DNA of 64,000 nucleotides, from assembly GCA_002150815.3 (NCBI GenBank), contig NDFF03000080.1, forward strand, positions 1 through 64,000, in the 5' to 3' direction. Source of the DNA: Grammothele lineata. Taxonomy: Eukaryota; Basidiomycota; Agaricomycetes; Polyporales; Polyporaceae. The notes under the pieces are model-generated. The model searched no databases and was not told the origin of the DNA. It saw only the letters and a list, made by a program, of their open reading frames with translations. Both the position numbers and the translations under genes were made by a program. Positions 8,655 to 35,383 of the stretch are shown here, in pieces; position 1 is the first letter of the stretch; the number at the start of each line of letters is the position of its first letter.

Positions 8655-9496
8655 ATGTTCGTGCAAATGGTCAACTTCGCTCTCGCCGCGATTGTCCTTG
8701 GACGTGGTAAGTCTCGCCCTCTGTGCTAGCCCCTTTCTATGCCGATTTTGAGGCAAAACTCTCAGTGGCTGCCCTCCCGTTCGACGGACCGCACGCCGAC
8801 TACGGTACCACGACCACCGCCATCGTCACTGTCAGCCCCGTAACGAGCACCGTTTGTGCTGGAAGCGTCACAACGGTCACGATCACCGAACCTGCGACAA
8901 CGACTGGAGGAGTCACCACGATCACTATCTCAGAGCCAGTGACTACCACCGGCGTGGTCACGACCACCGTCGTCTCCGGGTCCCTCACGAGCACGGGCGT
9001 GGTCACTACCACGTTCGTCTCCCAGCCAAGCATGATCACGTTCAGCTCTTCCGAGCCGGTTACGACCACCATTGATTCATCCGAGCCGGTCACGACTACC
9101 ATCGACTCCTCTGAGCCGTTTACTACCACTATCGACTCCTCCGAGCCCGTAACCACTACGCTCGACTCGTCGGAGCCCGCTACGACCACCCTCGAGTCTT
9201 CCGAACCCGCTACCACTACCATAGACTCCTCTGAGCCTGCCACCACCACCCTCGAGTCTTCCGAGCCCGCTACGACTACCCTCGAGTCGTCGGAGCCTGC
9301 CACCACCACGGTCGAGTCCTCCGAGCCGGCCACTACCACCATCGAGTCATCGGAGCCCGCTACCACCACAGTCGTCTCTTCCGAGCCCGGGACTACTACT
9401 GTCGAGTCGTCGAAGCCCGGCACCATCACCCTCGGTTCCTCCGAGCCCGCCACGACGACTATCGACTCGTCCCCGGTCACCATCATCACCGCTTGA
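8655..9496 (+). CDS. Secreted Ser/Thr-rich repeat protein
   Basis: Exons 8655-8706 and 8766-9496 give 260 residues: a signal peptide ending LAAIVLGR, a short VAALPFDGPHADYG leader, Thr/Val-rich strands with TTVTITEP and VTTTVVSGSLTSTG, then fourteen 10-residue repeats of the form SSEPATTTxE. No enzymatic motif, and no obvious C-terminal GPI-anchor hydrophobic tail. Dense Ser/Thr suggests heavy O-mannosylation, a cell-surface or stalk-like role (inference). It is a paralogue of the minus-strand gene at 34071-35253, sharing the leader, intron position and the SEPVTTTGVVTTTVV block; the repeats are expanded here. Confidence 0.8.
9047..9466 (+). repeat. Coding minisatellite, 14 units of 30 bases
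   Basis: Tandem in-frame 30-base units each encoding SSEP-x-TTT-x-(D/E). Synonymous differences between units (for example tcttcc, tcgtcg, tcctct for the Ser pair) show that the peptide, not just the DNA, has been maintained. The open antisense frame over this stretch is a by-product of the repeated codons. Confidence 0.85.
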
Positions 9497-12288: not shown

Positions 12289-15195
12289 ATGACACCCAGC
12301 TTCCCTTTGGAGCTCGAACATCTGGTTGTTGACAACCTGCAAGACGACATTCCGACTCTCCGAGCGTGCGCTCTTACCTGTCGCGCATGGCTTTTTGAAG
12401 CGCGCGCGCACCTTTTTCGCAACATTCATCTCAATACTCATCGTGACATCCTCGCTGTCACTCGTCTGTTTCAAGACAGACCCCCTCTCGCCCTGTTGGT
12501 CCAAATGGTGACGATACCTCTAGCGGGGGGCGTAGGACATGGACCAATGCTGCACTATGCAGCACCGTCTGTCTTGCACCGGTGCTTGCCAAATCTGCGT
12601 CAATGGTGCTTCGTCAGCCAACCCATATCACAGGCAGTCAACGTCGTATCGCTAGCTCATGCGCCTATGGCGTCCCTGAGAAAATATGGAGCCCTTCAAG
12701 AGCTGGTTGTGAGCGGTGTCACTCTGACATCTTATGTGGACTTGTACAGGATCTTGTCGTGTCTTCCGCATCTTCGTCGCCTCGAATACTCAGGTGTCAC
12801 GTTACTCCAATGCCTAGCGCAATCGCATTTTCTACAAAACAAGTTATCCGGGAATCTCAGATTAAGCCATCTCACGGTACGCCACACTACGCCAAGCCTC
12901 ATCCCGTGCTCTAATCATCAGATGCCGTAGACCGATATTGAACATATCCCCCACGTCGTCATGTTACTCGACTCGCCTAGTCTGCGCTACCTTTCGATTA
13001 ATTTGTGTAGTGAAGATGAGCCCGAATGTACGTTCTTTCATGCCACTCTCAAGTACCATGGATCTGAACGATTGGCTCGTCAAGTGCTCACCGCCACAGC
13101 CTCGTTTGTGGATCTTCGAGAGCTTTCCCTTCGCATAGGAATGTGCCAGAAGCCGGTGTCGTTCTTCAGAAACATCCTTTACGCCAGCGACATCATTGCT
13201 AGCACCGCACGTTGCTTTGATCTCACGATCCGGATGGACTTCTGGAAAGACTTTGGGATGGACGCGCTTTACCCCCAGCCGGCGTACTCTCGCCTGGAAG
13301 CGAAGATCGTGGAGAAGACTGCGGAGGGTCTCACTCAAGTCCGCCTGGTTATGCCTGGATGCGATGCTATGCAATACCTGTGGACGACCAGACTAGCACA
13401 AGTCTTCCCGGCCTTGCACGAGAAAAGATTGATTCGGCTGAGATACTCAGGTCAGCCCTTTTCATGCTTCGCACACTCACAGTACACCGGTATGCTGAAG
13501 CCGTACGAGCAGGACGTTGGTGGGATAGTTCGAAAGGAAACAAAGACCATGCCCGTGGTACGCCTATAGCCATTGCACTGTCCTCAGATGGAGGATGGTT
13601 CGCAAGCGTAACACGAGACTACCTTGCCATCCTTGGTTCTGCGTACTCCGCTCACGAAGTTGGGAGTTGGAAACTTTTTTCTCAGCACGGCCCTTTCGTG
13701 AATCAATTTTCAGGACCTTGTACGTCACCAGCACTCACCAGAGACTATGATTGGATTTCCTCGCTGATGCCATTCGTTAGCACGTTCGTGTAGCTTCTGT
13801 AAGCTGAAAGTGGAGCGACGAAGTGCCGTCATTTGCAGCGTTTGCGGCGATTGTTACCACGAAGATTGCTCTCAGAAACTCCCCGTCACATGCGATGTCC
13901 CGGAGTGGTTCATACGGCACCGCGTCTCCGAGGAAACTCCACTCCACGACAGTTGTGTGTCACGCACGTTCGGAGCTGGATTCCATGCTCAAGTTTTTCA
14001 ACGCCACACCGTACCTTTTACTACTCTTCCAAACTCGTGCGACGGCGCGCACCAGTCCAACCTCCGGCTACAAGTGACATTATTCTCCATCTTGGATGCT
14101 GCCTTTGCTCCTTCCCGCGACGGCATGGCGACATGCGTGTTTGGAACCGGGATGATAGACGAAGGAAAAGAACCTGCCAATCTCATGTCCATCGCCCTTA
14201 GCTCCGGCTTCGGCGGAGACGCAATGCTCTTCTCACCTGACTCCCGCTATCTCGCAGTTAGCCTTATTGCACGGGCCGGCTCCGTTTTCATCTTGGACAG
14301 GTTCACCGGCGGCCGGGCATACAGCTTTTCAGGCGTCGCCGGGGCGCGCTATAAGTCCCTGCGAAGTTGCTCACTCGCCTGGTCCCCTGATAGTAAAAGG
14401 CTTGCCGTTGCGACTTTACAACACGAAGAAGGTTTCGGAAAGCTCCGCGTGTACGACGTCCCAGGAGACGACGCCACTCCATACGATGAGCTAGACTACG
14501 ACGTATTCCACGGAAATGGCCTATTCCGCTGCGTCAAATTCGCGCCAAATGGCGTTCACGTCGCGGCACTTGGAACAACTGCAGAAGACGTCACGGACTC
14601 ATCATATCAAGATGCCCTGTACATCTGGGATCTAAAGACGGGTGCTGAAGTCGTCTACCCTTCGCTGGACGGCAGTCCGCTTACAGCTTTTGGGTTCTCC
14701 CCGGACGGGTCGTCCGTAGTCGTGGGATCCGGAAGCGGTTCACTCGCCACGATTGGCGCAGAAGCGTCCTCCGGGCGTGTTCGGAAGATCGCCCAAGCGG
14801 GGCGGAAGTTCCTTACTGGTATGAGACCACAGCGCGACTCAGCTAGGCCAAAGCTCCGATGTGCGTCTCCGGTTACGTGAGTGGTGTTCTCTCCGGACGG
14901 GAACCACGTCTTCGCCACGTCGTACAGCCTCCTCTGGCGCTGTGAGGCTGCCAACCTCAACAATGTATCCTGGGACGTCATGACGGTCCCACGAGAAATC
15001 ACAGCTATGCATTGCTCCCCGGGAAACGACGTCGTTCTGCTCGGACTATGGGACGGGACCGTGTGGTTCATCGACGCGGAGACCGGAGCTAGGTTGAGAA
15101 CCTTCCGACACTGCATCTCCCGCGCGATTCAGGCAATCGCCGTAGCTCCAAATGGCTTAGCACTGACCTGTGTTGGGGAGAACGGGGAGGTATGA
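12289..15195 (+). pseudogene. F-box / LRR-like / zinc-finger / WD40 protein, copy D, with stop codons
   Basis: Exons 12289-12876, 12931-13027, 13085-13450, 13483-13719 and from 13781. Exons 2 and 3 (97 and 366 bases) equal those of intact copy F. Order: F-box (FPLELEHLVVDNL, LTCRAWLFEARAHLF), a leucine-rich middle, one WD-like blade (ALSSDGGWFASV), a C-x2-C-x11-C-x2-C-x4-H-x2-C finger near 13792-13850, then WD40 blades (FSPDSRYLAV, WSPDSKRLAV, FSPDGSSVVVG). The frame hits TGA at 14878-14880 where F and E have Arg in VTRV, and again at 15193 where F has Cys; homology continues between and just past them. In intact relatives F-box/WD40 proteins act as ubiquitin-ligase receptors. Probably a decaying gene; readthrough or assembly error cannot be excluded. 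Confidence 0.7.
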
Positions 15196-15435
15196 TGTTT
15201 TCGCGCGCCGGGTATCTTCTGTACTATAGATCACAATCGAGGGGCGTAACTGTATTGTCGATGTATGAGTGGATTTACAATGGACGAACGTACAACCTTG
15301 AATGTGCCATTATGGAGTTTGCTACAGGATAGATTACAATGAGGAAGATAAGATGAGCCTGGTAAGTTACTAAGGACCTCGTTCCCGGAGAGTTCGCGTC
15401 ATTCATTCTCGTTAGGCGCATACGCGTCGACACGA

Positions 15436-23364: not shown

Positions 23365-26300
23365 TCAGAAACAGGAATACAGGCCAGGCGCGCGGACACA
23401 GCACACCCGCCCATCCGTCCCAACACCAGTCAGCGCCGAGCCGTCTGGAGTCATCGCGACCCCTTGAACCGCGCTGGTAATGCAGTGGCGGACGATCCTC
23501 AACTTGTTCCCGGTCCCCGCGTCCAAGACCCATATTGCACCATTCGACATCCCGAGAAGGACGACGTCGTCGCTGTGTGAGAAGTCCGCCGCAGTGATCT
23601 CCAAGGAGAGTCCAGTGTCGACTGCCCAGATGGCACGCTCGACTCGAAGGTCGTTTATGTCGTGGCGCCATATCGCATTGTACGACGTAACAAAAACAGT
23701 CTTCCCGTCCGAAGAGACTGCCACTCGTGTAATGTACGGTCGAAATGGTGTCCTCTCGGACGTAACGGGAGAGGACTTGAAGAGGTTCCGCACCGTTTGG
23801 ACACCATGACGGATGCGCTGCTGGAGGCGCGGTGGTGTGCGTGCTGTGGGAGCTGGGTTCGTAGGCACGGGTCTTGCAGGGCTGGTATTGGCTGTGATCG
23901 CATGATCGGTATCGATCGCGACTACGGCGAGTTCACCCGTGTCGGAGCCGCACACGACGCCGGTGCTGTCCGGCAAGAACGCGAATGCCGTGAGCCCCTG
24001 GGTGACCGTGTCCCACGGGCCCGGGTCTGGAAACCTGTATACAACTGTCGAGCCAGGCCTCAAGTCGGCCCGCCGAACGTAGAGCGTATTTGGGCCGCGC
24101 CGAGGCTCGCCAAAATTGGTCTCGATGGCACCGATGAAGAGCCCGTCTGGCGAGAAGCTGACGCTGTGGTACGTGCGATGCCCAGAGCACGTGTCATATT
24201 CGAGCTCGCAGGGATCCCATGGTGCTCCATAAGGCTCCGGGATTTTGTAGATGAGGAGCTCGCCGACCTTCGATTGTCGTATAACTGATACAAGCAGCCG
24301 TTTGCTGTCCGGGGCCCAAGAGAGAGAGCAACTGAGAGCGGGCCTATGGCGCCTCTCGCCTGTGTCCAACAAGCTTCTCGCTCGATTTCCAGTCAACCTG
24401 TCCAGGATGAACACGCACCCGCCGCGAGCTCTAAGGACGACGGCGAGGTATCGGCTGTCGGGTGAAAAGGACATGGCATCGCTGTGGACCAGACCCGTGT
24501 TTGAAAGTGAAATCAGACGTCCTGATCGAGGCACCTTGTCACTCACAGCGGCCCTGACCGCGGCGCCATCCAAGACAGATAGTAGCTTTGATTTTGGCTG
24601 GTTTCCCGACCCGTTGACGAAGGTGGGAGCTATGTTAGAGAAAGTGGATGTCCTAAAGCGCCAAGACTCGGAGGGTTCCGGAGTGACTATATTGGCCTTC
24701 GGCACGTCACATCTAGTTGGCCGCAGATTCTCGGGCACGGCGTGATTGCAAGCGAGTCGTTCGGGAATATCACAAGTAGGAGGGAGATTTTGCGAGCAAT
24801 CGGAATGAAAGCAGTTCTGACAGACTTCGCATCGCACAGCGTCTTCTTTCAGTAGTTCCATGCAATATCCGCACAATCGCTCTAGCTCATGGGGACCGGG
24901 GTCAGCAGCCGCCGAACAGGACCGTGTATCACCATCAGACTATGACGTACGTTTCAAATTTCCCTTAACAAATTTGCCGTGCTTTGCAAGGATAGTAGTC
25001 CAGGTTCCTACTTCGTGACCGGAGTGCACTGAAGTAAGGGACACAACGGTGTCCTCACCCACGCTTGAAAGCCACATGCCATCAAGGGAGAGTGCAGCAG
25101 CCTCCGGGTGGGCTTCCGTAAACGTGCGATGACGTTGGACCGCGCCACAGAGACGTACTATACACGTAGAATGATCATTGAGATGCTGAGTATGATCCGG
25201 GCGGAATTGGACTGACCGAGACAGCCCATTCGGGTGGATATCCTTGCATATATCGCTGGGAAGACGAGTGCCAAGCGTGTCTCCCACAGCTGGCGCACGG
25301 CGTTACAAGCCGGTATTACCAGCGCGACTTCCCTGAGGCCTTTGTCCATCTTCTCCACCAACGCCGTCTCTAAACGTGAGTATTCGGGCCGAGGATAGAA
25401 CACGTCCATCTCGAAATTGAGCCAAAAGTTCATGTGGACTACAAGATCGATGGGCCGAGGAGTAGCACAAGAGACGAGGTCGCTTGCGTGCAACACATTC
25501 TCAAGGAATAGCGTTGAATCTGGGCACGCTCCAATTCGGATAGACAGCCGACGAAGATTTACGAACAAAGACGTAATGTCAGACACTTAAAATGAAGGTC
25601 TAGATCAGGACCACGACCCCTGAGTGGAACGAGAAGGCACATACAGACTGGTTTCTTTTCGCAGCACAGACTGATATACAAGTGGTGAAGGCAAGAAGCA
25701 TCAAGTAGTTCGGACATGTACGCGAGATGCTCGATATCAATCTGCCGGACTATGACATCAGTAGAAGGAATGGCATGGAGAGCGTTACGACGCACTGCAA
25801 GGTAGTTTAGGCAGACTTTCCCAGAAAGGCGTCCTTGCAGGGCATGTCGTTTAGCCGGCTGCTGGATAGTGAGACGAAGGCACTCGAGTTGTCTGAGATG
25901 TGGAAAACCTAACAAAATCCTGTAAAGATCTGCGTAGGAGGATAAGGAGAGTGCGTTCAGCTCCAGCTCGTAGACCGCCTTGTATCGTTTCAAACACGCC
26001 ATCGGTGCGTGGGCTAGTGAAACGGTGTCGGGGTTTACTAGCGCTGAATCCTTGGTAAAACGCCATCGTCGAAGATCGGGCAAGTACTTGTACAAGGCGG
26101 ACGGCGCTGCGTAATGGATCATCGATCCGCGCCCCGTGCCGCTTCGAAGAGGTATGGTCACCTCTTGCACCAACGGTGACAGTGTAGGATTCTCCTGGAA
26201 GAGTTTGACCAAGGCTCGGAGGTCCTGATGGGATTCGAGACATATGCTGTGAAGAGGAGAGTACGAGCTTCGGGTAGCCAAGCGCGACAGACGAGGGAGC

Positions 26301-26379
26301 ACGCTCGGGGCGACTCGGTGTTGTCGTGGAGGCTGTGGATTACGAGGTACTCGAGCTCTAGAGGTAGCTTGGAAGGCAT
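23365..26379 (-). pseudogene. F-box / LRR-like / zinc-finger / WD40 protein, copy E, one-base deletion
   Basis: Exons 26379-25796, 25741-25645, 25585-25217, 25157-24951 and 24881-23365. The F-box part (LPLELEYLVIHSL, LVCRAWLPEARTLLF) and the leucine-rich part (LVQEVTIPLRSG) are in different frames: near 26246-26252 one base is missing compared with F, and exon 1 is 584 bases against F's 585. All later exons keep frame: the SGHEVGTW blade, zinc finger CGYC-x10-CEVC-x4-H-x2-C, WD40 blades (FSPDSRYLAV, WAPDSKRLLV, FSPDGLFIGA), ending RAPGLYSCF. Without the deletion it would be a receptor-like protein as F. The call rests on one base, so a sequencing error is possible. Convergent with hydrolase C. 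Confidence 0.75.
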
Positions 26380-26839
26380 CTGAGTCAATCCCGACAGTCA
26401 GCCTGCAGTTCTCAACGGAGAGCGTTATCAACTCGCCTCGCAGGGGAAGTGGTCTGATTGCTGTATACGTGCCAGCTGGTTCACAAACGGAAGGGGAGGG
26501 GAGGGGAAATAGGGAGTGAGGACTACAAGCCCACCCGTTATAATCCCTCAGGCCTTAGGCATCAGAGGTCTTATCGAATCGCACAGCCCGGCCGCGACCT
26601 GTGCAAGTACTGCTGACTGCGGTAGGCGGTGACGGGCGAAGTTGTCATATTACACGGGGGCCGCATAAGTCACACGACAACAGTGACCCAGGGATAAAAA
26701 CAAGAGTGTGATACAACAAACTTCGATAGTGGCACATGCACAAGTAGACCGACCAATTATACCAACATCCACCATGATGCGCTAACCCAAGAGCACTCAC
26801 AACCTCAGCGCGTGATCTTCTCCCCCAATATGCTATCGA

Positions 26840-27045
26840 GACAGCGTCTGCAAGATTCTCGTCAGTTCGTCACGTAGGAAGGCACGTAGGGAGATCTGGA
26901 CGCACTCCATCGCCGTGTGATCGCGGCAGACTCGAGTTTGAAGCCAAACTTGAACGTCTGGCCACAGGCTGCTCACGCTGCTTCGGATGCGATCTATCGT
27001 GGCACACCGTCCTCGGATGGGGTGGGGTAGCGTGAGGGATGCAGG
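26840..27045 (-). pseudogene. Relic of the small conserved gene found intact at 31558-31979
   Basis: The minus strand carries blocks matching that gene: CCGAGGACG followed by the ACGTTCAAGTTTG segment (TFKF), and CTTGCAGACGCTGTCTCG (acceptor plus TLSR), but with stops and rearranged sequence between. It lies upstream of F-box copy E as the intact gene lies upstream of copy F, so it was carried in the same duplication. Confidence 0.6.
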
Positions 27046-28093: not shown

Positions 28094-31000
28094 TCAAAAG
28101 CACGAAAATATTCCAGGTGCGCGAACGCAGCACACCCGCCCGTCCGCCCCAACGCAGGTCAGCGCTGACCCATCCGACGCCATCGCGATCTCCCGCACCG
28201 CGCTGGAGATACAGTGCCGGAAGGTCGTCAACTTTTCCCCGGTCTCCGCGTCGAGGACCCATACTGAGCCGTCCGACATCCCGAGTAGCACCACCTCGTC
28301 GCTGTGCGTGAAGTCCGCTGCGGTGATCTCCAAGGATTGGGTGTCGACTACCCAGGAAATCTTCCCGAGTCCTCTCCAAGCCTCGCGGCGCCATACGAGA
28401 CGGGGTGACGTGGCGAGGACATGCTTGCCATCTGGAGAGAATGCCACACGCGTCACCGGCGATGAAGCACGTTTGTCGAGGACGACCGGAGGAGAGGGTG
28501 ACGCGACCGCAGGGGGCGGAGCGAGCATGTCAGAGCCGTCACGTGACGGCGACGGCTCAAAGAGGCTCTGCATCGTTCGTATCGCCTTCCAGACGAGGCC
28601 CGATTTCAAGGCCCTCCAGAAGGTTGCTATGATGGAGGGCTGCACTGGCTTCCTATACAGCTCAATGACGTCGAGTGCCCCGGTCTCCGATCCCGTCACG
28701 ATGCGCGTCCCGTCTGGAGAGAACCCGAAGGCCGTAAGCGCGCTCCCGTCGAGCGATGTATACTCGTTCTTCGAGTTTTCGCGGGCCACCAAATCGGCGC
28801 GCCAGACGTACAGCGAGTCCCGTGGCGTCAAGCCCCCCGTGTTGGGGCCCCTGTAATTCCTGACGCACTTCCCGAGTGCGGCGACGCGCGAACCATGGGG
28901 TGAGAAGCGGACGCTGTGGTACGTGCCGTGCCCATCGCATACGTCGAAATCTAGGATGTCGCGATCCGACGGTAGCGCTTTGCCTTCAACCTGAAGATTC
29001 TTGTAAAACAGGAGTTCTCCGAATCCAGCGGCGTCCCGCATTATAGCCACGGCGATCCGTTTGCCATCGGGGGACCAAGCCAGGGAGCAGCCGAGGACCG
29101 GCTCGTAGCGTTTTCTGCCGATCTCCAGGAGGCTACTCGTGCGCCTTCCGGTGAGCCGGTCCAGCACGAATACACATCCGCCCCGCGCGACGAGGGCGAC
29201 AGCGATGTAGCGCCCGTCGGGCGAGAACGACACGGCGTTGCCATGCTGCGGGTCGTGCGCGATGGATGTCGGGGCTGGATGTGGCCGTCCTTCCTCCAGA
29301 GCGCCTACTCTAGGTTGGCTGTCCGTCTTCCACTTCCCGGCAGTGGTGACGGTGGTGGTGAGCAACCGAACGAACGCTGCCTTAAGATGAGATCTCGACT
29401 TCTGACGGACGGCGTCGGGGTTGGAAATGCGAGTAGTTTGATCGCGCGAAGAGGGATTCAGCACGAGGTCGGAGACCGCGGGTGATGAAACACTGCTGGT
29501 GTGTAGCGGCTCTCCGGGAGTCGCTTGGGACACGACTTGTGCAGGGATGTCGCATGTGGCAGGGAGCTGTTGCGAACAACGTCCATGGTAGAAGCCATTG
29601 CAGATACTGCATCGTACCGGATTTTCGGTGACATCATCTTGACAGAAGTCGCACGGGCGCGCTAGATCACAGGGTCAGCTACAACCTGAACACCTGTTCG
29701 CGACACATCATGACGTACTGTATGTCAGAATGTCCTGAGTGAAGGGCCCATGCTTGGCAAGAACGGCCCATTTTCCTACTTCGTACCCGGAGTACGTCGA
29801 AGCGAAGTAAACGGTATGGTCTTGATCTACACTCGAAGACGACCTTCCGTCCCGGGAGAGCGCGGTGGCCCTAGCCTGGGCGTCCGAGCGCATACGCTTC
29901 GAGAGACATCCTGTTAACAAAACATGTCAAGGGACCATTCCAACAACCGGGTGAGCAACACACTCAGTGAGACACAGCAAGGACTAACCTAAGTCATCTA
30001 GTTCCAGAGAGATCTTCTCATGTATTGCCGGGAAGACCAGTGCCAATCTCGTAGTCCACAGCTGCCGCAGGGCATCACACCCAGGCATCACCAACACGGT
30101 CTCCTTCAAACCTTCGCCCCTCTTCTTCATGATGATCCCTGCTAAGTAGAAGTAGGCTGCTTCAGGACAAAACGCGTCGATGTCGAAATTCTGCCAGAAG
30201 TTCATGTGTATTCTGAGACTCATGAGAGGCGCGAGGCTCGAGATGAGATCTCCTGCATGGATGACATTCATAATGAATGATCTTGGACCTGAGCACGTCC
30301 CCACGCGAATCGAGAGACGGCGTAGATTCGCAAACAAGGACGAGATGGTGAGTACTGTCAGGAACGATGGGGTTAGAGGCACGCTACCCATAAGGAACTA
30401 GCAGAGACGTACCTTCGGGTTTGCGTTCGCCGCATAGACCAACGGACAGGTCCTGAAGACGAGAAGGATCGATCAACGCGAGAAAGTGCCCTAGATGCTC
30501 GATATCGATCTGCAATGGCAGCTAATCAAGACGGGTATTCATAGCGAGCGTGCCACGACGCACCGTGAGATGCGTGAGCAAGGGTTTCCCGGAGAGTCGA
30601 CCCTTCAGGGCATGCAACTGGGCCGGTTTCTGCACTACGAGGCCGGAGCACTCGAGCCGTCGGAGACATGGAAGACTAGACAAGATCCTATACAGGTCCG
30701 TGTAAGAGGACAAAGTGAGTCCGCGCAGCCCCAGCTCGCGGACGGCCTGATATTTTTTCAAACATGCCATCGGCGCATGCGCTAGCGAGACGATATCGTG
30801 ATTCGTCAGGCCAGAATCTCCGGTAAAGCACCACCGCCGCAAGTTGGGCAAGTACTGGTGCAGGGCGGACGGCGCTGCATAGTGAATCATCGATCCGCGC
30901 CCTACCCCTGCTCGGAGAGGTATCATCACCTCTTGAACCAAAGGTGCCAGGGAATGGTCCTTCTGGAATAGTCGAATCAGGGTTCGGAGGTCGTGATGAG

Positions 31001-31148
31001 AGTCGAGGCGTATGCTGCGGAAGAGGAGCGCGCGAGCTTCGAAGACCCATGCGTAACAGACGAGGGCGCACGCCTGGAGTGACTCGGGGTCGTGCTGAAG
31101 GTTGTGAATTACGAGGTATTGAAGTTCTAGAGGTAGCTGGGAGGGCAT
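28094..31148 (-). CDS. F-box / LRR-like / zinc-finger / WD40 protein, copy F, intact
   Basis: Five exons, 31148-30564, 30509-30413, 30354-29989, 29910-29719 and 29661-28094, give 935 residues with no break. Residues 1-50: F-box (MPSQLPLELQYLVIHNL, LVCYAWVFEARALLF), expected to bind Skp1 of an SCF ubiquitin ligase. About 50-350: leucine-rich repeats of irregular type. About 360-410: a WD-like blade (ALSRDG, SGYEVGKW). About 416-440: C-x2-C-x10-C-x2-C-x4-H-x2-C, a RING/PHD-like zinc site. The rest: WD40 blades (FSPDGRYIAV, WSPDGKRIAV, FSPHGSRVAA, FSPDGTRIVTG, FSPDGKHVLAT, SDGSVWVLDAETG). The first intron shares its GTGCGT donor and CAG acceptor with E. Function as a substrate receptor is inferred. 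Confidence 0.85.
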
Positions 31149-31557: not shown

Positions 31558-31979
31558 TCACGACGTCCCGGGATTCGAGATCGACAGGTTCTCCCCTCCG
31601 CCCTCTTGCTTCTCTTGTTCTGCTAGCCGGACCCTTCAAGGATGGTTTGACATGTGTGAGGAATCGAGGATTAGATAGGTAGACTCACTTGTTCCGCGCG
31701 ACGAGCACGCGAAGGGTACGCTCCTTCTCCGCCGGGGTCATGCTCTCCCAATTCGCAATACGAGACAGCGTCTGCAGGATATATCTCGAGTTCGGTTTAC
31801 AAGAAAAACGCAAGCATGTCTCTACGTACACCATCACTGTTGACCACGACGGGCCCGAGCTTGTCAAACTTGAACGTTTGAGCGCTGTTCACGGTGATCC
31901 GCTCTACATCGTCCTCGGGTGGAGGTGGGGGCAGCGCAAGGGGTGCAGTGGTTTTTTCCGAGGTTTTTGACGTACTCAT
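31558..31979 (-). CDS. Small conserved fungal protein (VVNSDGTLSRIANW family)
   Basis: Exons 31979-31830, 31771-31689 and 31633-31558 give 102 residues: a Pro-rich stretch, then TFKFDKLGPVVVNSDG, TLSRIANWESMTPAEKERTLRVL and an ARNKVRLAEQEK tail. I recognise this as a widespread uncharacterised fungal small protein with the pattern LGPxVVNxDGTLSRIxNW...E..RTLRVL..RN; no biochemical role is known to me. The last intron is needed because reading through gives a stop right after ARNK; splicing adds 25 codons and restores the family's usual RxRL ending. It sits head-on upstream of F-box copy F, and a relic is upstream of copy E. Confidence 0.78.
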
Positions 31980-34070: not shown

Positions 34071-35253
34071 TTAGAACGTGGTAGTGGCAACGCTGGTAGC
34101 CATCGTAGACGGTACCGAAGAGACGATGCTCGTAGTGACGACGCCCCCAGCAGTGGTGCTGTCGACCGGAGATGAGTCGAGGGTCGTGGTGACACCGACG
34201 GCGGTCGTACTGCCAACCGGGGAGGAGTCGAGGGTCGTGGTAGCGCCTACAGCAGTGGTGCTGCCAACCGGGGACGAGTCAAGCGTCGTGGTGCCCACCT
34301 GCGAGATAACGACGGACGTGCCTACGGCCCCGGTGGAGACGACCGTAGTACTGACCGGGGAAGAGCCGAAGGCGATCGTAGTCGGCTCGGAGGAGACTGT
34401 GATCGTGGTGACGGCGCCGCAGGAGTCGGCGGTGGTGCCGGACGAGACCTCGAAGGTCGTAGTCACGGGCTCGGAGGAGTCGAGAGTCGTGGTGGTGACC
34501 TCGAAAGAGTCGAAAGTGGTAGTGACCGGCTCGGAGGACCCGATGGTGGTCGTGGCGGGCTCAGAGACGAACGTCGTTGTGACCACGCCCGTGCTGGTGA
34601 GCGTCCCGGAAACTACGGTGGTAGTGACGACCCCGGTCGTGGTCACAGGCTCGGAGATAGTGATGGTGGTGACGCTACCGGAGGAGACGGTGGAGGTGAC
34701 GACTCCCGTAGACTCGGGGAACGTGATAGTGGTGACCTGGCCGGAGGAGACGGTGCTTGTCACGACACCCGTGGACGAGGGGGCGGAGAAAGTGACCGTA
34801 GAGGGCTCACAGACCGTGCTCGTCACGGGCCCAGAGACGGTGGCAAAACTGCTGGAGACGACGCCGGTGGACTCTGGGACGGTGAAGATGCTGGAAACGA
34901 CCCCGGTTGACTGGGGAACAGAGACGATGCTTGTAACAACACCGGTCGATGCGGGCTCCGACGTGAAGATGCTTGTCACGACGCCGCCAGCGGTGGTGGT
35001 CGCGGGAGAGACGATGGAGGTGATGACCCCTCCGGTGGGCGGATCGATGGTCCAAGTCTCGGTCGTCACCGTGCCTCCGCGCTCGGTGGTGATCGTGGTG
35101 ACGTAGTTAGCATTAGGACTGTTGAAAGGGACAGCAGCGGCTGAGAGGCGTCCGTGAAATTCAGCACAGATGCAATTCCGATGCGAGGGAAGACTCACCA
35201 TGGCCGGCGAGGGCGATCGCAGCGAGAGCAAAGTTGAGCAAGTGCATGACCAT
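34071..35253 (-). CDS. Large secreted Ser/Thr/Val-rich repeat protein
   Basis: Exons 35253-35199 and 35140-34071 give 374 residues. Signal peptide MVMHLLNFALAAIALAGH matches that of the 8655 gene (VNFALAAIVLGR). The mature part begins AAVPFNSPNANYVTTITTERGGTVTTETWTIDPP, the YVTT module also seen twice at 32322-32652, then long Thr/Val/Ser repeats: STGVV(T/S)S units, SSEPVTTTF, and three TTTLDSSPV(G/D)STTA units near the C-terminus. Two Cys only. A cell-surface or matrix O-glycoprotein is the likely role by composition. It is the inverted paralogue of 8655-9496, about 25 kb away. Confidence 0.8.
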
Positions 35254-35375
35254 CTTGTGTGAGGATAAACGGGAAGGTCGGCCTGATAGTGAAGGGGGCT
35301 GGAATACACCGGTGGCTCGAAAGGAGAAGGGAAGAAAGCTTGAAGGACTGGCGAACCCTGCCGGTAGACGCGAGG

Positions 35376-35383
35376 CTTTTATA
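35376..35383 (-). promoter_or_regulatory. Probable TATA box of the 35253 gene
   Basis: TATAAAAG on the minus strand, about 123 bases ahead of ATG 35253, the same arrangement as its paralogue at 8655. Confidence 0.55.

What the first reader, a model, noticed from the sequence alone, without database searches (positions are those of the whole stretch)
28094..31148. Unusual domain order: F-box, LRR-like, WD blade, zinc finger, WD40 propeller in one protein
Intact copy F encodes 935 residues in which a C-x2-C-x10-C-x2-C-x4-H-x2-C site sits between a first WD-like blade and the rest of the WD40 repeats. All three paralogues keep the six zinc ligands although the linker varies. F-box proteins normally carry LRR or WD40, not both with an embedded RING/PHD-like finger. 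A receptor with its own second E3-like or histone/ubiquitin-reading module is possible.
Basis: partly seen in the sequence, partly recalled or inferred. Interest (0 to 1): 0.75.

Follow-up and report, generated by a model that had tools for sequence, protein, structure and literature searches.

The report
F-box protein with inserted C1 domain
A fungus of the mushroom class carries a gene for a predicted protein-destruction receptor in which a small zinc-binding domain, of the kind found in a cell-division kinase, sits in a loop of its propeller-shaped binding module.

Summary
In detail: window 28094-31148 (-) encodes one 935-residue, five-exon protein with F-box, weakly LRR-like region, WD-like blade, zinc site and WD40 propeller. 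Two paralogues, both with disabling changes, share its four introns. The interpretation changes. The zinc site has two further invariant ligands (His403, Cys450): H-x12/13-C-x2-C-x10/11-C-x2-C-x4-H-x2-C-x7-C, an atypical RAF-like C1 domain rather than RING or PHD, whose last C-x2-C is absent in 3 of 3 copies. F-box/LRR-like/WD40 order is not unique: 4 other loci of this genome show it without the finger, 3 with a phase-1 junction intron like this gene's. About 150 residues (C1 plus fast-evolving linker) are inserted between blades 1 and 2. Of five other C1 segments compared from the genome, the closest lie in two CDC15/SIN-type kinases, which have a phase-1 intron at the same codon. Likeliest mechanism: an SCF substrate receptor with an added membrane/GTPase-type targeting module. 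Architecture is well supported, SIN-kinase origin probable, function inferred. A second-E3 module is not supported. Against: copies A and F miss Pfam's C1 cut-off, A scores higher on a RING-like profile, and the C1 structure prediction failed (pLDDT 33). New variant of a known kind.

The parts
30564..31148 (-). Exon 1: F-box (about residues 3-48, 31142-31005) and start of the LRR-like region
   Evidence: gene model; PF12937 F-box-like E 3.3e-4 for F's first 50 residues (20.8 bits, cut-off 24.3); 12 of 12 members of alignment A4 match it at E up to 1
30413..30509 (-). Exon 2, LRR-like region
   Evidence: intron 1 (phase 0) and intron 2 (phase 1) shared with A, B and cousin L034
29989..30354 (-). 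Exon 3, end of the LRR-like region
   Evidence: 47-51% amino-acid identity among copies, changes mostly at third positions; the only PDB match of the region's profile is the F-box/LRR receptor TIR1, E 0.044
29911..29988 (-). Intron 3 (phase 1) at the F-box-LRR / WD40 junction
   Evidence: junction intron of phase 1 read by eye in cousins L034, L035 and L040
29719..29910 (-). Exon 4: WD-like blade 1 (about 29884-29768) and first C1 zinc ligand His403 (29750-29752)
   Evidence: dN/dS 0.32, 0.29, 0.47 in three pairwise comparisons
29662..29718 (-). Intron 4 (phase 1) inside the C1 domain, same codon as in the SIN-type kinases
29552..29752 (-). C1 domain, residues 403-450 (interrupted by intron 4): H403, C417, C420, C431, C434, H439, C442, C450
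   Evidence: all eight invariant in A, B and F; positions; C1_1 31.3 bits in B; RAF1 C1 is B's top PDB match, E 0.0014
29270..29551 (-). Low-conservation linker between C1 and blade 2
   Evidence: 16-26% identity among copies, dN 0.86-1.05 over 80 codons; pLDDT mostly under 50
28094..29269 (-). Rest of the WD40 propeller and stop codon
   Evidence: PF00400 44.4 bits over cut-off 27; the 50 Foldseek PDB matches listed are WD40 propellers, prob 1.00
23365..26379 (-). Paralogue B, frameshifted in exon 1; C1 ligands between 24772 and 24981
12289..15219 (+). Paralogue A, stop codons in exon 5 at 14878 and 15193; finger Cys between 13789 and 13893

Best explanation
Gene F encodes a predicted SCF substrate receptor of a fungal F-box / LRR-like / WD40 family, into which an atypical C1 domain plus a flexible linker was inserted in the loop between propeller blades 1 and 2. 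Shown from sequence: one reading frame over five exons, introns shared by three paralogues, eight invariant C1-type ligands, and cousins without the insert. Probable: the C1 segment, with its phase-1 intron, came from a CDC15/SIN-type kinase gene. Inferred: the F-box docks on Skp1; the propeller (and perhaps the LRR-like region) binds a substrate; and the C1, like RAF and KSR C1 domains, places the ligase at an anionic membrane or a small GTPase rather than acting as an E3 or histone reader.
For: 935-codon model and shared introns. Exon 4, which joins the two halves, has changes concentrated at third positions and dN/dS 0.29-0.47. Eight invariant ligands. C1_1 31.3 bits in B, cut-off 26.5. B's 23 best PDB matches are C1 domains of RAF1, B-raf and other kinases, E 0.0014 to 0.17, the best aligned from its first His. 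Similarity to the L051 kinase C1 beyond Cys/His: 0 of 1000 shuffles reach the score for each of A, B, F; profile comparison probability 97.5. Scores of F/B/A to the L051 C1 are 86/107/84, to L052 75/89/69, to the presumed PKC and C3 segments 31-72. L051 and L052 have a phase-1 intron with donor GTACGT three codons before the first Cys, as in A, B, F. Blade 1 to 2 spacing, from hand-cut segments, is 154-166 residues in A, B, F and 10-17 in 4 cousins. C1 46-51% identical, linker 16-26%. KSR's atypical C1 recruits phospholipids without reacting to phorbol esters (PMC5583734, passages); phosphatidylserine is an important determinant for the RAF domain at membranes (PMC10387098, passages).
Against: No transcript data. 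Copies A and F fall below Pfam's C1 cut-off (22.1 and 22.0 bits; F's exon alone only 12.7). A prefers zf-RING_16 and its top PDB match is the KAP-1 PHD finger; F's third PDB match is a PHD finger. The C1 structure prediction failed (pLDDT 33) and the 604-residue model is weak (52). The presumed PKC C1A scores near A, B, F on the kinase C1 profile (27.9 against 31.0-37.3) and also beats nearly all shuffles (3 of 1000 reach it); a 54-column tree does not resolve the origin. The C1 His lies beside a 'KH' that C1-less L034 also has, so it may in part be an inherited loop residue. F alone is below the F-box cut-off, and in one scan an unrelated helical family scored slightly better. Two of three copies carry disabling changes. 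Nothing tests Skp1, lipid or GTPase binding.
Confidence: 0.6

Rival explanations
1. The finger is a degenerate RING or PHD-like treble clef that acts as a second E3 module or chromatin/ubiquitin reader.
For: Copy A: zf-RING_16 24.4 bits, PHD E 0.0034; A's best PDB match is the KAP-1 PHD finger, E 0.0075; PHD fingers appear among F's weaker PDB matches.
Against: No C-x2-C after the H-x2-C within 60 residues in 3 of 3 copies. Eight invariant ligands fit C1. B passes the C1_1 cut-off; no copy passes a RING or PHD cut-off. B's 23 best PDB matches are C1 domains.
Confidence: 0.07
2. Two adjacent genes: an ordinary F-box gene ending in exon 3, and a separate C1/WD40 gene beginning in exon 4.
For: In F a stop codon (TAG, 29984-29986) follows directly if intron 3 is not spliced, and an in-frame ATG lies early in exon 4.
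Against: The gap is a 78-nt GT..AG intron with the same phase in A, B, F and, by eye, in cousins L034, L035, L040. B has no ATG before blade 1 in that frame. There is hardly room for a terminator and promoter.
Confidence: 0.05
3. A decaying, non-functional fusion family: the C1 insertion was a neutral accident and F is simply the last copy not yet broken.
For: 2 of 3 copies carry disabling changes; the linker is nearly unconstrained; no full-length relative was found outside this genome.
Against: C1 and propeller are far better kept than the linker; dN/dS 0.20-0.21 in exon 1 and 0.29-0.47 in exon 4; a 935-codon frame stays open in F although dS to A and B is above 1 in the exons counted.
Confidence: 0.2
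4. The C1 came from another C1 gene (for example PKC) or arose independently, and the shared intron position is coincidence.
For: Tree unresolved, with one presumed PKC C1 beside B; PKC C1A is not far below on the kinase C1 profile. Five of the ten other C1 hits were not compared.
Against: Pairwise scores favour the SIN-kinase C1 in all three copies. Of the five C1 segments elsewhere in the genome that I looked at for this (L051, L052, presumed PKC C1A and C1B, C3_b) only the two kinase ones have an intron there.
Confidence: 0.25

Closest known systems
Ordinary F-box/WD40 receptors (FBXW7/Cdc4, beta-TrCP type)
   Same: N-terminal F-box, C-terminal WD40 propeller; the F-box profile matches FBXW chains weakly (best E 0.038)
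   Different: LRR-like region of about 300 residues between them, and a C1 domain plus linker inside the propeller. This genome also has a one-frame F-box/WD40 protein of the ordinary kind in L045 (label from reading the sequence)
F-box/LRR receptors (FBXL2, TIR1)
   Same: F-box profile's best PDB match is FBXL2 (E 0.026); LRR-like region matches TIR1 weakly (E 0.044)
   Different: A WD40 propeller follows
C1-less F-box/LRR-like/WD40 loci of the same genome (L034, L035, L040; probably L039)
   Same: Same order; junction intron of phase 1 in three; L034 also shares introns 1 and 2
   Different: 10-17 residues where A, B, F have 154-166; no C-x2-C..C-x2-C..H-x2-C pattern
CDC15/SIN/MEN-type kinases (SepH/Cdc7 group; that group name is recalled)
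   Same: C1 with the same spacing and the same phase-1 intron; C1_1 34.2 bits in L051
   Different: They carry a protein kinase domain, which F lacks
RAF1 / KSR atypical C1 (cysteine-rich) domains
   Same: C1 with a short central spacer (RAF1 x9 in the alignment, here x10/11)
   Different: Set in a kinase or scaffold, not in an F-box protein

Membership tests
F-box protein (SCF receptor) | F-box motif at the N terminus | tested here: met
   PF12937 is the only family for F's first 50 residues, E 3.3e-4, but 20.8 bits against a cut-off of 24.3; 12 of 12 members of A4 (F, A and ten other loci of the genome) match at E up to 1, best 1.6e-8; 10 of 13 PDB matches of the profile are F-box proteins, all weak
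F-box protein (SCF receptor) | Binds Skp1 / Cul1 | not testable with these tools
   needs a binding assay
WD40 beta-propeller | WD40 repeats over the family cut-off | tested here: met
   PF00400 44.4 bits against 27; Foldseek prob 1.00 to WD40 propellers from a weak model
LRR protein | LRR repeats by profile | tested here: inconclusive
   LRR_At5g56370 E 0.091 in A, LRR_NXF1-5 E 0.068 in 1 of 3, TIR1 E 0.044
C1 domain (PF00130) | Eight-ligand H/C pattern | tested here: met
   H-x12/13-C-x2-C-x10/11-C-x2-C-x4-H-x2-C-x7-C invariant in 3 of 3
C1 domain (PF00130) | Profile score over the curated cut-off | tested here: inconclusive
   B 31.3 bits (met); A 22.1 and F 22.0 (not met); cut-off 26.5
C1 domain (PF00130) | Predicted C1 fold | tested here: inconclusive
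   AlphaFold job of 86 residues with the intron left in, pLDDT 33
Typical DAG/phorbol-binding C1 | Central spacer x13/14 (consensus recalled) | tested here: not met
   x10 in F and B, x11 in A
PHD finger | Final C-x2-C pair | tested here: not met
   absent within 60 residues in 3 of 3
RING finger | C-x2-C pair after the His-containing block | tested here: not met
   absent within 60 residues in 3 of 3; no RING profile over cut-off, though A reaches 24.4 of 27.4 on zf-RING_16
CDC15/SIN kinase | Protein kinase domain | tested here: not met
   no kinase family among the 25 shown of 32 for F

The most novel reading that the evidence does not exclude
A ubiquitin-ligase receptor captured the regulatory C1 domain of a septation-initiation (CDC15/SIN) kinase, intron included, and uses it as an integrated copy of that kinase's docking site, so that the ligase goes where the kinase goes and competes with it or destroys its partners.
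Probability: 0.12. Interest if true: 0.75.

Novelty: new variant of a known kind. Interest (0 to 1): 0.42.

Why it matters
Fungal F-box proteins are usually sorted by one C-terminal module; in the survey seen here (PMC7991009, passages) LRR, WD40 and ankyrin appear as separate classes. This gene adds a C1 domain inside a propeller loop, apparently by transfer from a cytokinesis kinase. If real and expressed, it would show how a substrate receptor can be re-addressed to a membrane or signalling site by inserting one domain into a propeller loop, and it offers cousins with and without the insert for direct comparison.

Tried and rejected
RING/PHD identity: rejected because the last C-x2-C is missing in 3 of 3 copies and C1 matches are better in B and F; kept as a rival because of copy A.

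Two separate genes: rejected on intron phase and constraint of exon 4.

Relatives elsewhere: one search with the whole protein gave 32 matches at E up to 0.001, propeller proteins by their Pfam columns and names where given (7991 candidates scored); a second, on residues 1-480, gave none at E up to 1 (7992 scored). The database does hold agaricomycetes (61 kinase relatives), but the search needs shared 5-residue words and scored a capped number of candidates, so distant relatives are not excluded. The same order was not sought in annotated fungal genomes, which were not on hand.

Structure: the 604-residue model (3 rows, pLDDT 52) supports only a WD40 propeller. The C1 model failed, perhaps because the intron had to be left in. 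Blade number and placement of the C1 are unsettled.

Tree of C1 domains: 54 columns, unresolved; A, B, F form one group in 8% of 200 bootstrap trees. My first exon-3 codon test used a wrong frame and was redone.

Ten long ORFs of the window were scanned with Pfam; 9 had no match at E up to 0.01, and one gave weak WD40 matches that I put down to a Ser/Thr-rich repeat read on the wrong strand.

Literature: nine searches listed no report of an F-box protein with a C1 domain or of this order. Only listings were seen, except passages of three papers. The library is open-access only.
Full report
WHAT WAS CHECKED. The finding describes one protein encoded on the minus strand at 28094-31148. A manual splice model with five exons and four GT..AG introns (54, 58, 78, 57 nt) gives 935 codons and a stop with no interruption. 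All four introns lie at the same places in the three copies, with phases 0, 1, 1, 1 (read). One weak point is intron 3 of A, only 32 nt with the homologous acceptor, or 119 nt with a later one. A has stop codons in exon 5 at 14878 and 15193; B has a frameshift in exon 1. A search of the window's own genome (41.8 Mb, 252 contigs) found the finger and start of the propeller only in these three places (3 matches of 7 candidates scored; 9 exon matches, all in A, B or F).

ONE GENE OR TWO. Between the F-box half and the WD40 half lies exon 4. Its differences between copies concentrate at third codon positions, with dN/dS 0.32, 0.29 and 0.47 for the three pairs. Exon 1 gives 0.20-0.21, and exon 3 is 47-51% identical at amino-acid level with changes mostly at third positions. 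The gap before exon 4 has intron ends of the same phase in all three copies. B offers no start codon before blade 1 in that frame. A single transcript is therefore far the more likely, but there were no RNA data.

THE FINGER LOOKS LIKE A C1 DOMAIN. The full pattern is H-x12/13-C-x2-C-x10/11-C-x2-C-x4-H-x2-C-x7-C, that of a C1 domain with a short central spacer. In F the ligands are H403, C417, C420, C431, C434, H439, C442, C450. Pfam's C1_1 scores 31.3 bits in spliced B (cut-off 26.5), 22.1 in A and 22.0 in F. B's best solved relative is the RAF1 cysteine-rich domain, aligned from its first His (E 0.0014), and its 23 best are C1 domains of kinases. F's two best are a C1 of a protein kinase D (E 4.6e-4) and RAF1 (0.0035); its third is a PHD finger (0.021). 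Against this, A prefers zf-RING_16 (24.4 bits, below cut-off) and the KAP-1 PHD finger (E 0.0075). RING and PHD both need a C-x2-C pair further on; none occurs within 60 residues in 3 of 3 copies. Between copies the exon-5 part of the C1 (37 codons) is 46-51% identical, while the next 80 codons of linker are 16-26% identical with dN 0.86-1.05: the finger is conserved, the linker is not.

THE HOST FAMILY. I fetched 12 stretches of the same genome, chosen from F-box and WD40 hits. In 4 of the 12 (L034, L035, L039, L040) an F-box-type frame and an LRR-like stretch precede a WD40-type frame on one strand; a fifth, L045, is a one-frame F-box/WD40 protein of the ordinary kind (whose printout was cut in the middle). 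L034 shares intron 1 (phase 0), intron 2 (phase 1) and the junction intron 3 (phase 1) with A, B, F and aligns along the F-box/LRR-like part at 26% identity to F. L035 and L040 have, by eye, a phase-1 junction intron. In L039 I could not resolve the junction. The F-box label of L035 and L040 rests on similarity to F's exon 1, not on Pfam; L035's piece had no Pfam match. None of the 12 stretches has the finger pattern, and the four cousins have 10-17 residues between blade 1 and blade 2 where A, B, F have 154-166. So F-box/LRR-like/WD40 is a small family in this fungus, and the C1 plus linker marks one branch of it. The simplest reading is an insertion; loss of the insert in the cousins is not excluded. 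The LRR label stays weak: best signals E 0.044 (TIR1), 0.068 and 0.091.

WHERE THE C1 CAME FROM. A search of the genome with Pfam's C1 family gave 13 matches at E up to 10, three of them A, B, F (of these only B over the cut-off). Two others, L051 and L052, lie in closely similar kinase genes. L051's relatives are named STE/STE11/CDC15 protein kinase (Ganoderma boninense, 67% identical over the searched part) and Protein kinase of the Mitotic Exit Network (Saitoella). L051's C1 scores 34.2 bits. Their C1 spacing is H-x12-C-x2-C-x10-C-x2-C-x4-H-x2-C-x7-C once an intron is removed. In both, that phase-1 intron, with donor GTACGT, lies three codons before the first Cys, exactly where intron 4 lies in A, B, F. 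The presumed PKC C1A and C1B and a C1 on contig C3 are read without an intron there (the PKC label is recalled). Scores of F, B, A are 86, 107, 84 to L051, 75, 89, 69 to L052, and 31-72 to the PKC and C3 segments. With Cys and His held fixed, 0 of 1000 shuffles of each of F, B, A reach the score to L051; the controls gave 3 (PKC C1A), 54 (C1B) and 353 (C3_b) of 1000. Comparing the profile of A, B, F with that of 15 kinase C1 segments (L051 and 14 of the 35 found) gives probability 97.5. The case is not closed: PKC C1A scores 27.9 on the kinase profile against 31.0-37.3 for A, B, F, and the small tree is unresolved. Of 61 kinase relatives 35 show the full pattern; their introns are not known. 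Five of the 13 hits (C54, C35, C203, C25 twice) were not compared.

STRUCTURE. AlphaFold on exon 4 + intron 4 read through + exon 5 (604 residues, 3 rows) gave mean pLDDT 52; Foldseek against the PDB returned WD40 propellers in the 50 rows listed (best E 3.8e-15, prob 1.00). The C1 piece with the intron left in gave pLDDT 33 and says nothing.

MECHANISM. Most likely: an SCF substrate receptor (F-box to Skp1; propeller and perhaps LRR-like region to substrate) with a C1 domain on a flexible tether at a propeller loop. Atypical C1 domains of RAF and KSR act at membranes: phosphatidylserine is an important determinant for the RAF domain (PMC10387098, passages), and the KSR domain recruits phospholipids without reacting to phorbol esters (PMC5583734, passages). 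By analogy the C1 here would place the ligase at a membrane or GTPase. This step is inference. The shortened spacer argues against diacylglycerol binding (consensus recalled).

NOVELTY. No full-length relative was found in two database searches of limited reach, and nine literature searches listed no F-box protein with a C1 domain. A survey of fungal F-box proteins treats LRR, WD40 and ankyrin as separate classes (PMC7991009, passages). I rate it a new variant of a known kind. The host is probably a relative of the Polyporaceae, judged only from the kinase match.

Noticed in passing
8711-9496 (+) and 34071-35378 (-): Two related Ser/Thr-rich repeat ORFs lie about 3 kb upstream of copies A and F respectively, in inverted orientation, suggesting that each copy was duplicated together with a neighbouring gene.
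   Followed up: partly
L036 (C29), L037 (C29), L041 (C145), L042 (C79), L044 (C32): The genome has several long single-frame proteins of WD40 repeats (382-471 residues); in L036 an F-box-type frame lies on the opposite strand.
   Followed up: no
L051 (C231:593238) and L052 (C37:4492): Two CDC15/SIN-type kinase genes with a C1 domain split by an intron; four predicted relatives (P0065, P0075, P0081, P0084) have unrelated residues just before the first Cys, as expected if that intron is conserved and was read through.
   Followed up: partly
about 26830-26860 and 31750-31780: Short similar stretches (GAGACAGCGTCTGCA) upstream of B and F suggest that a further small gene or promoter piece was duplicated with them.
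   Followed up: no
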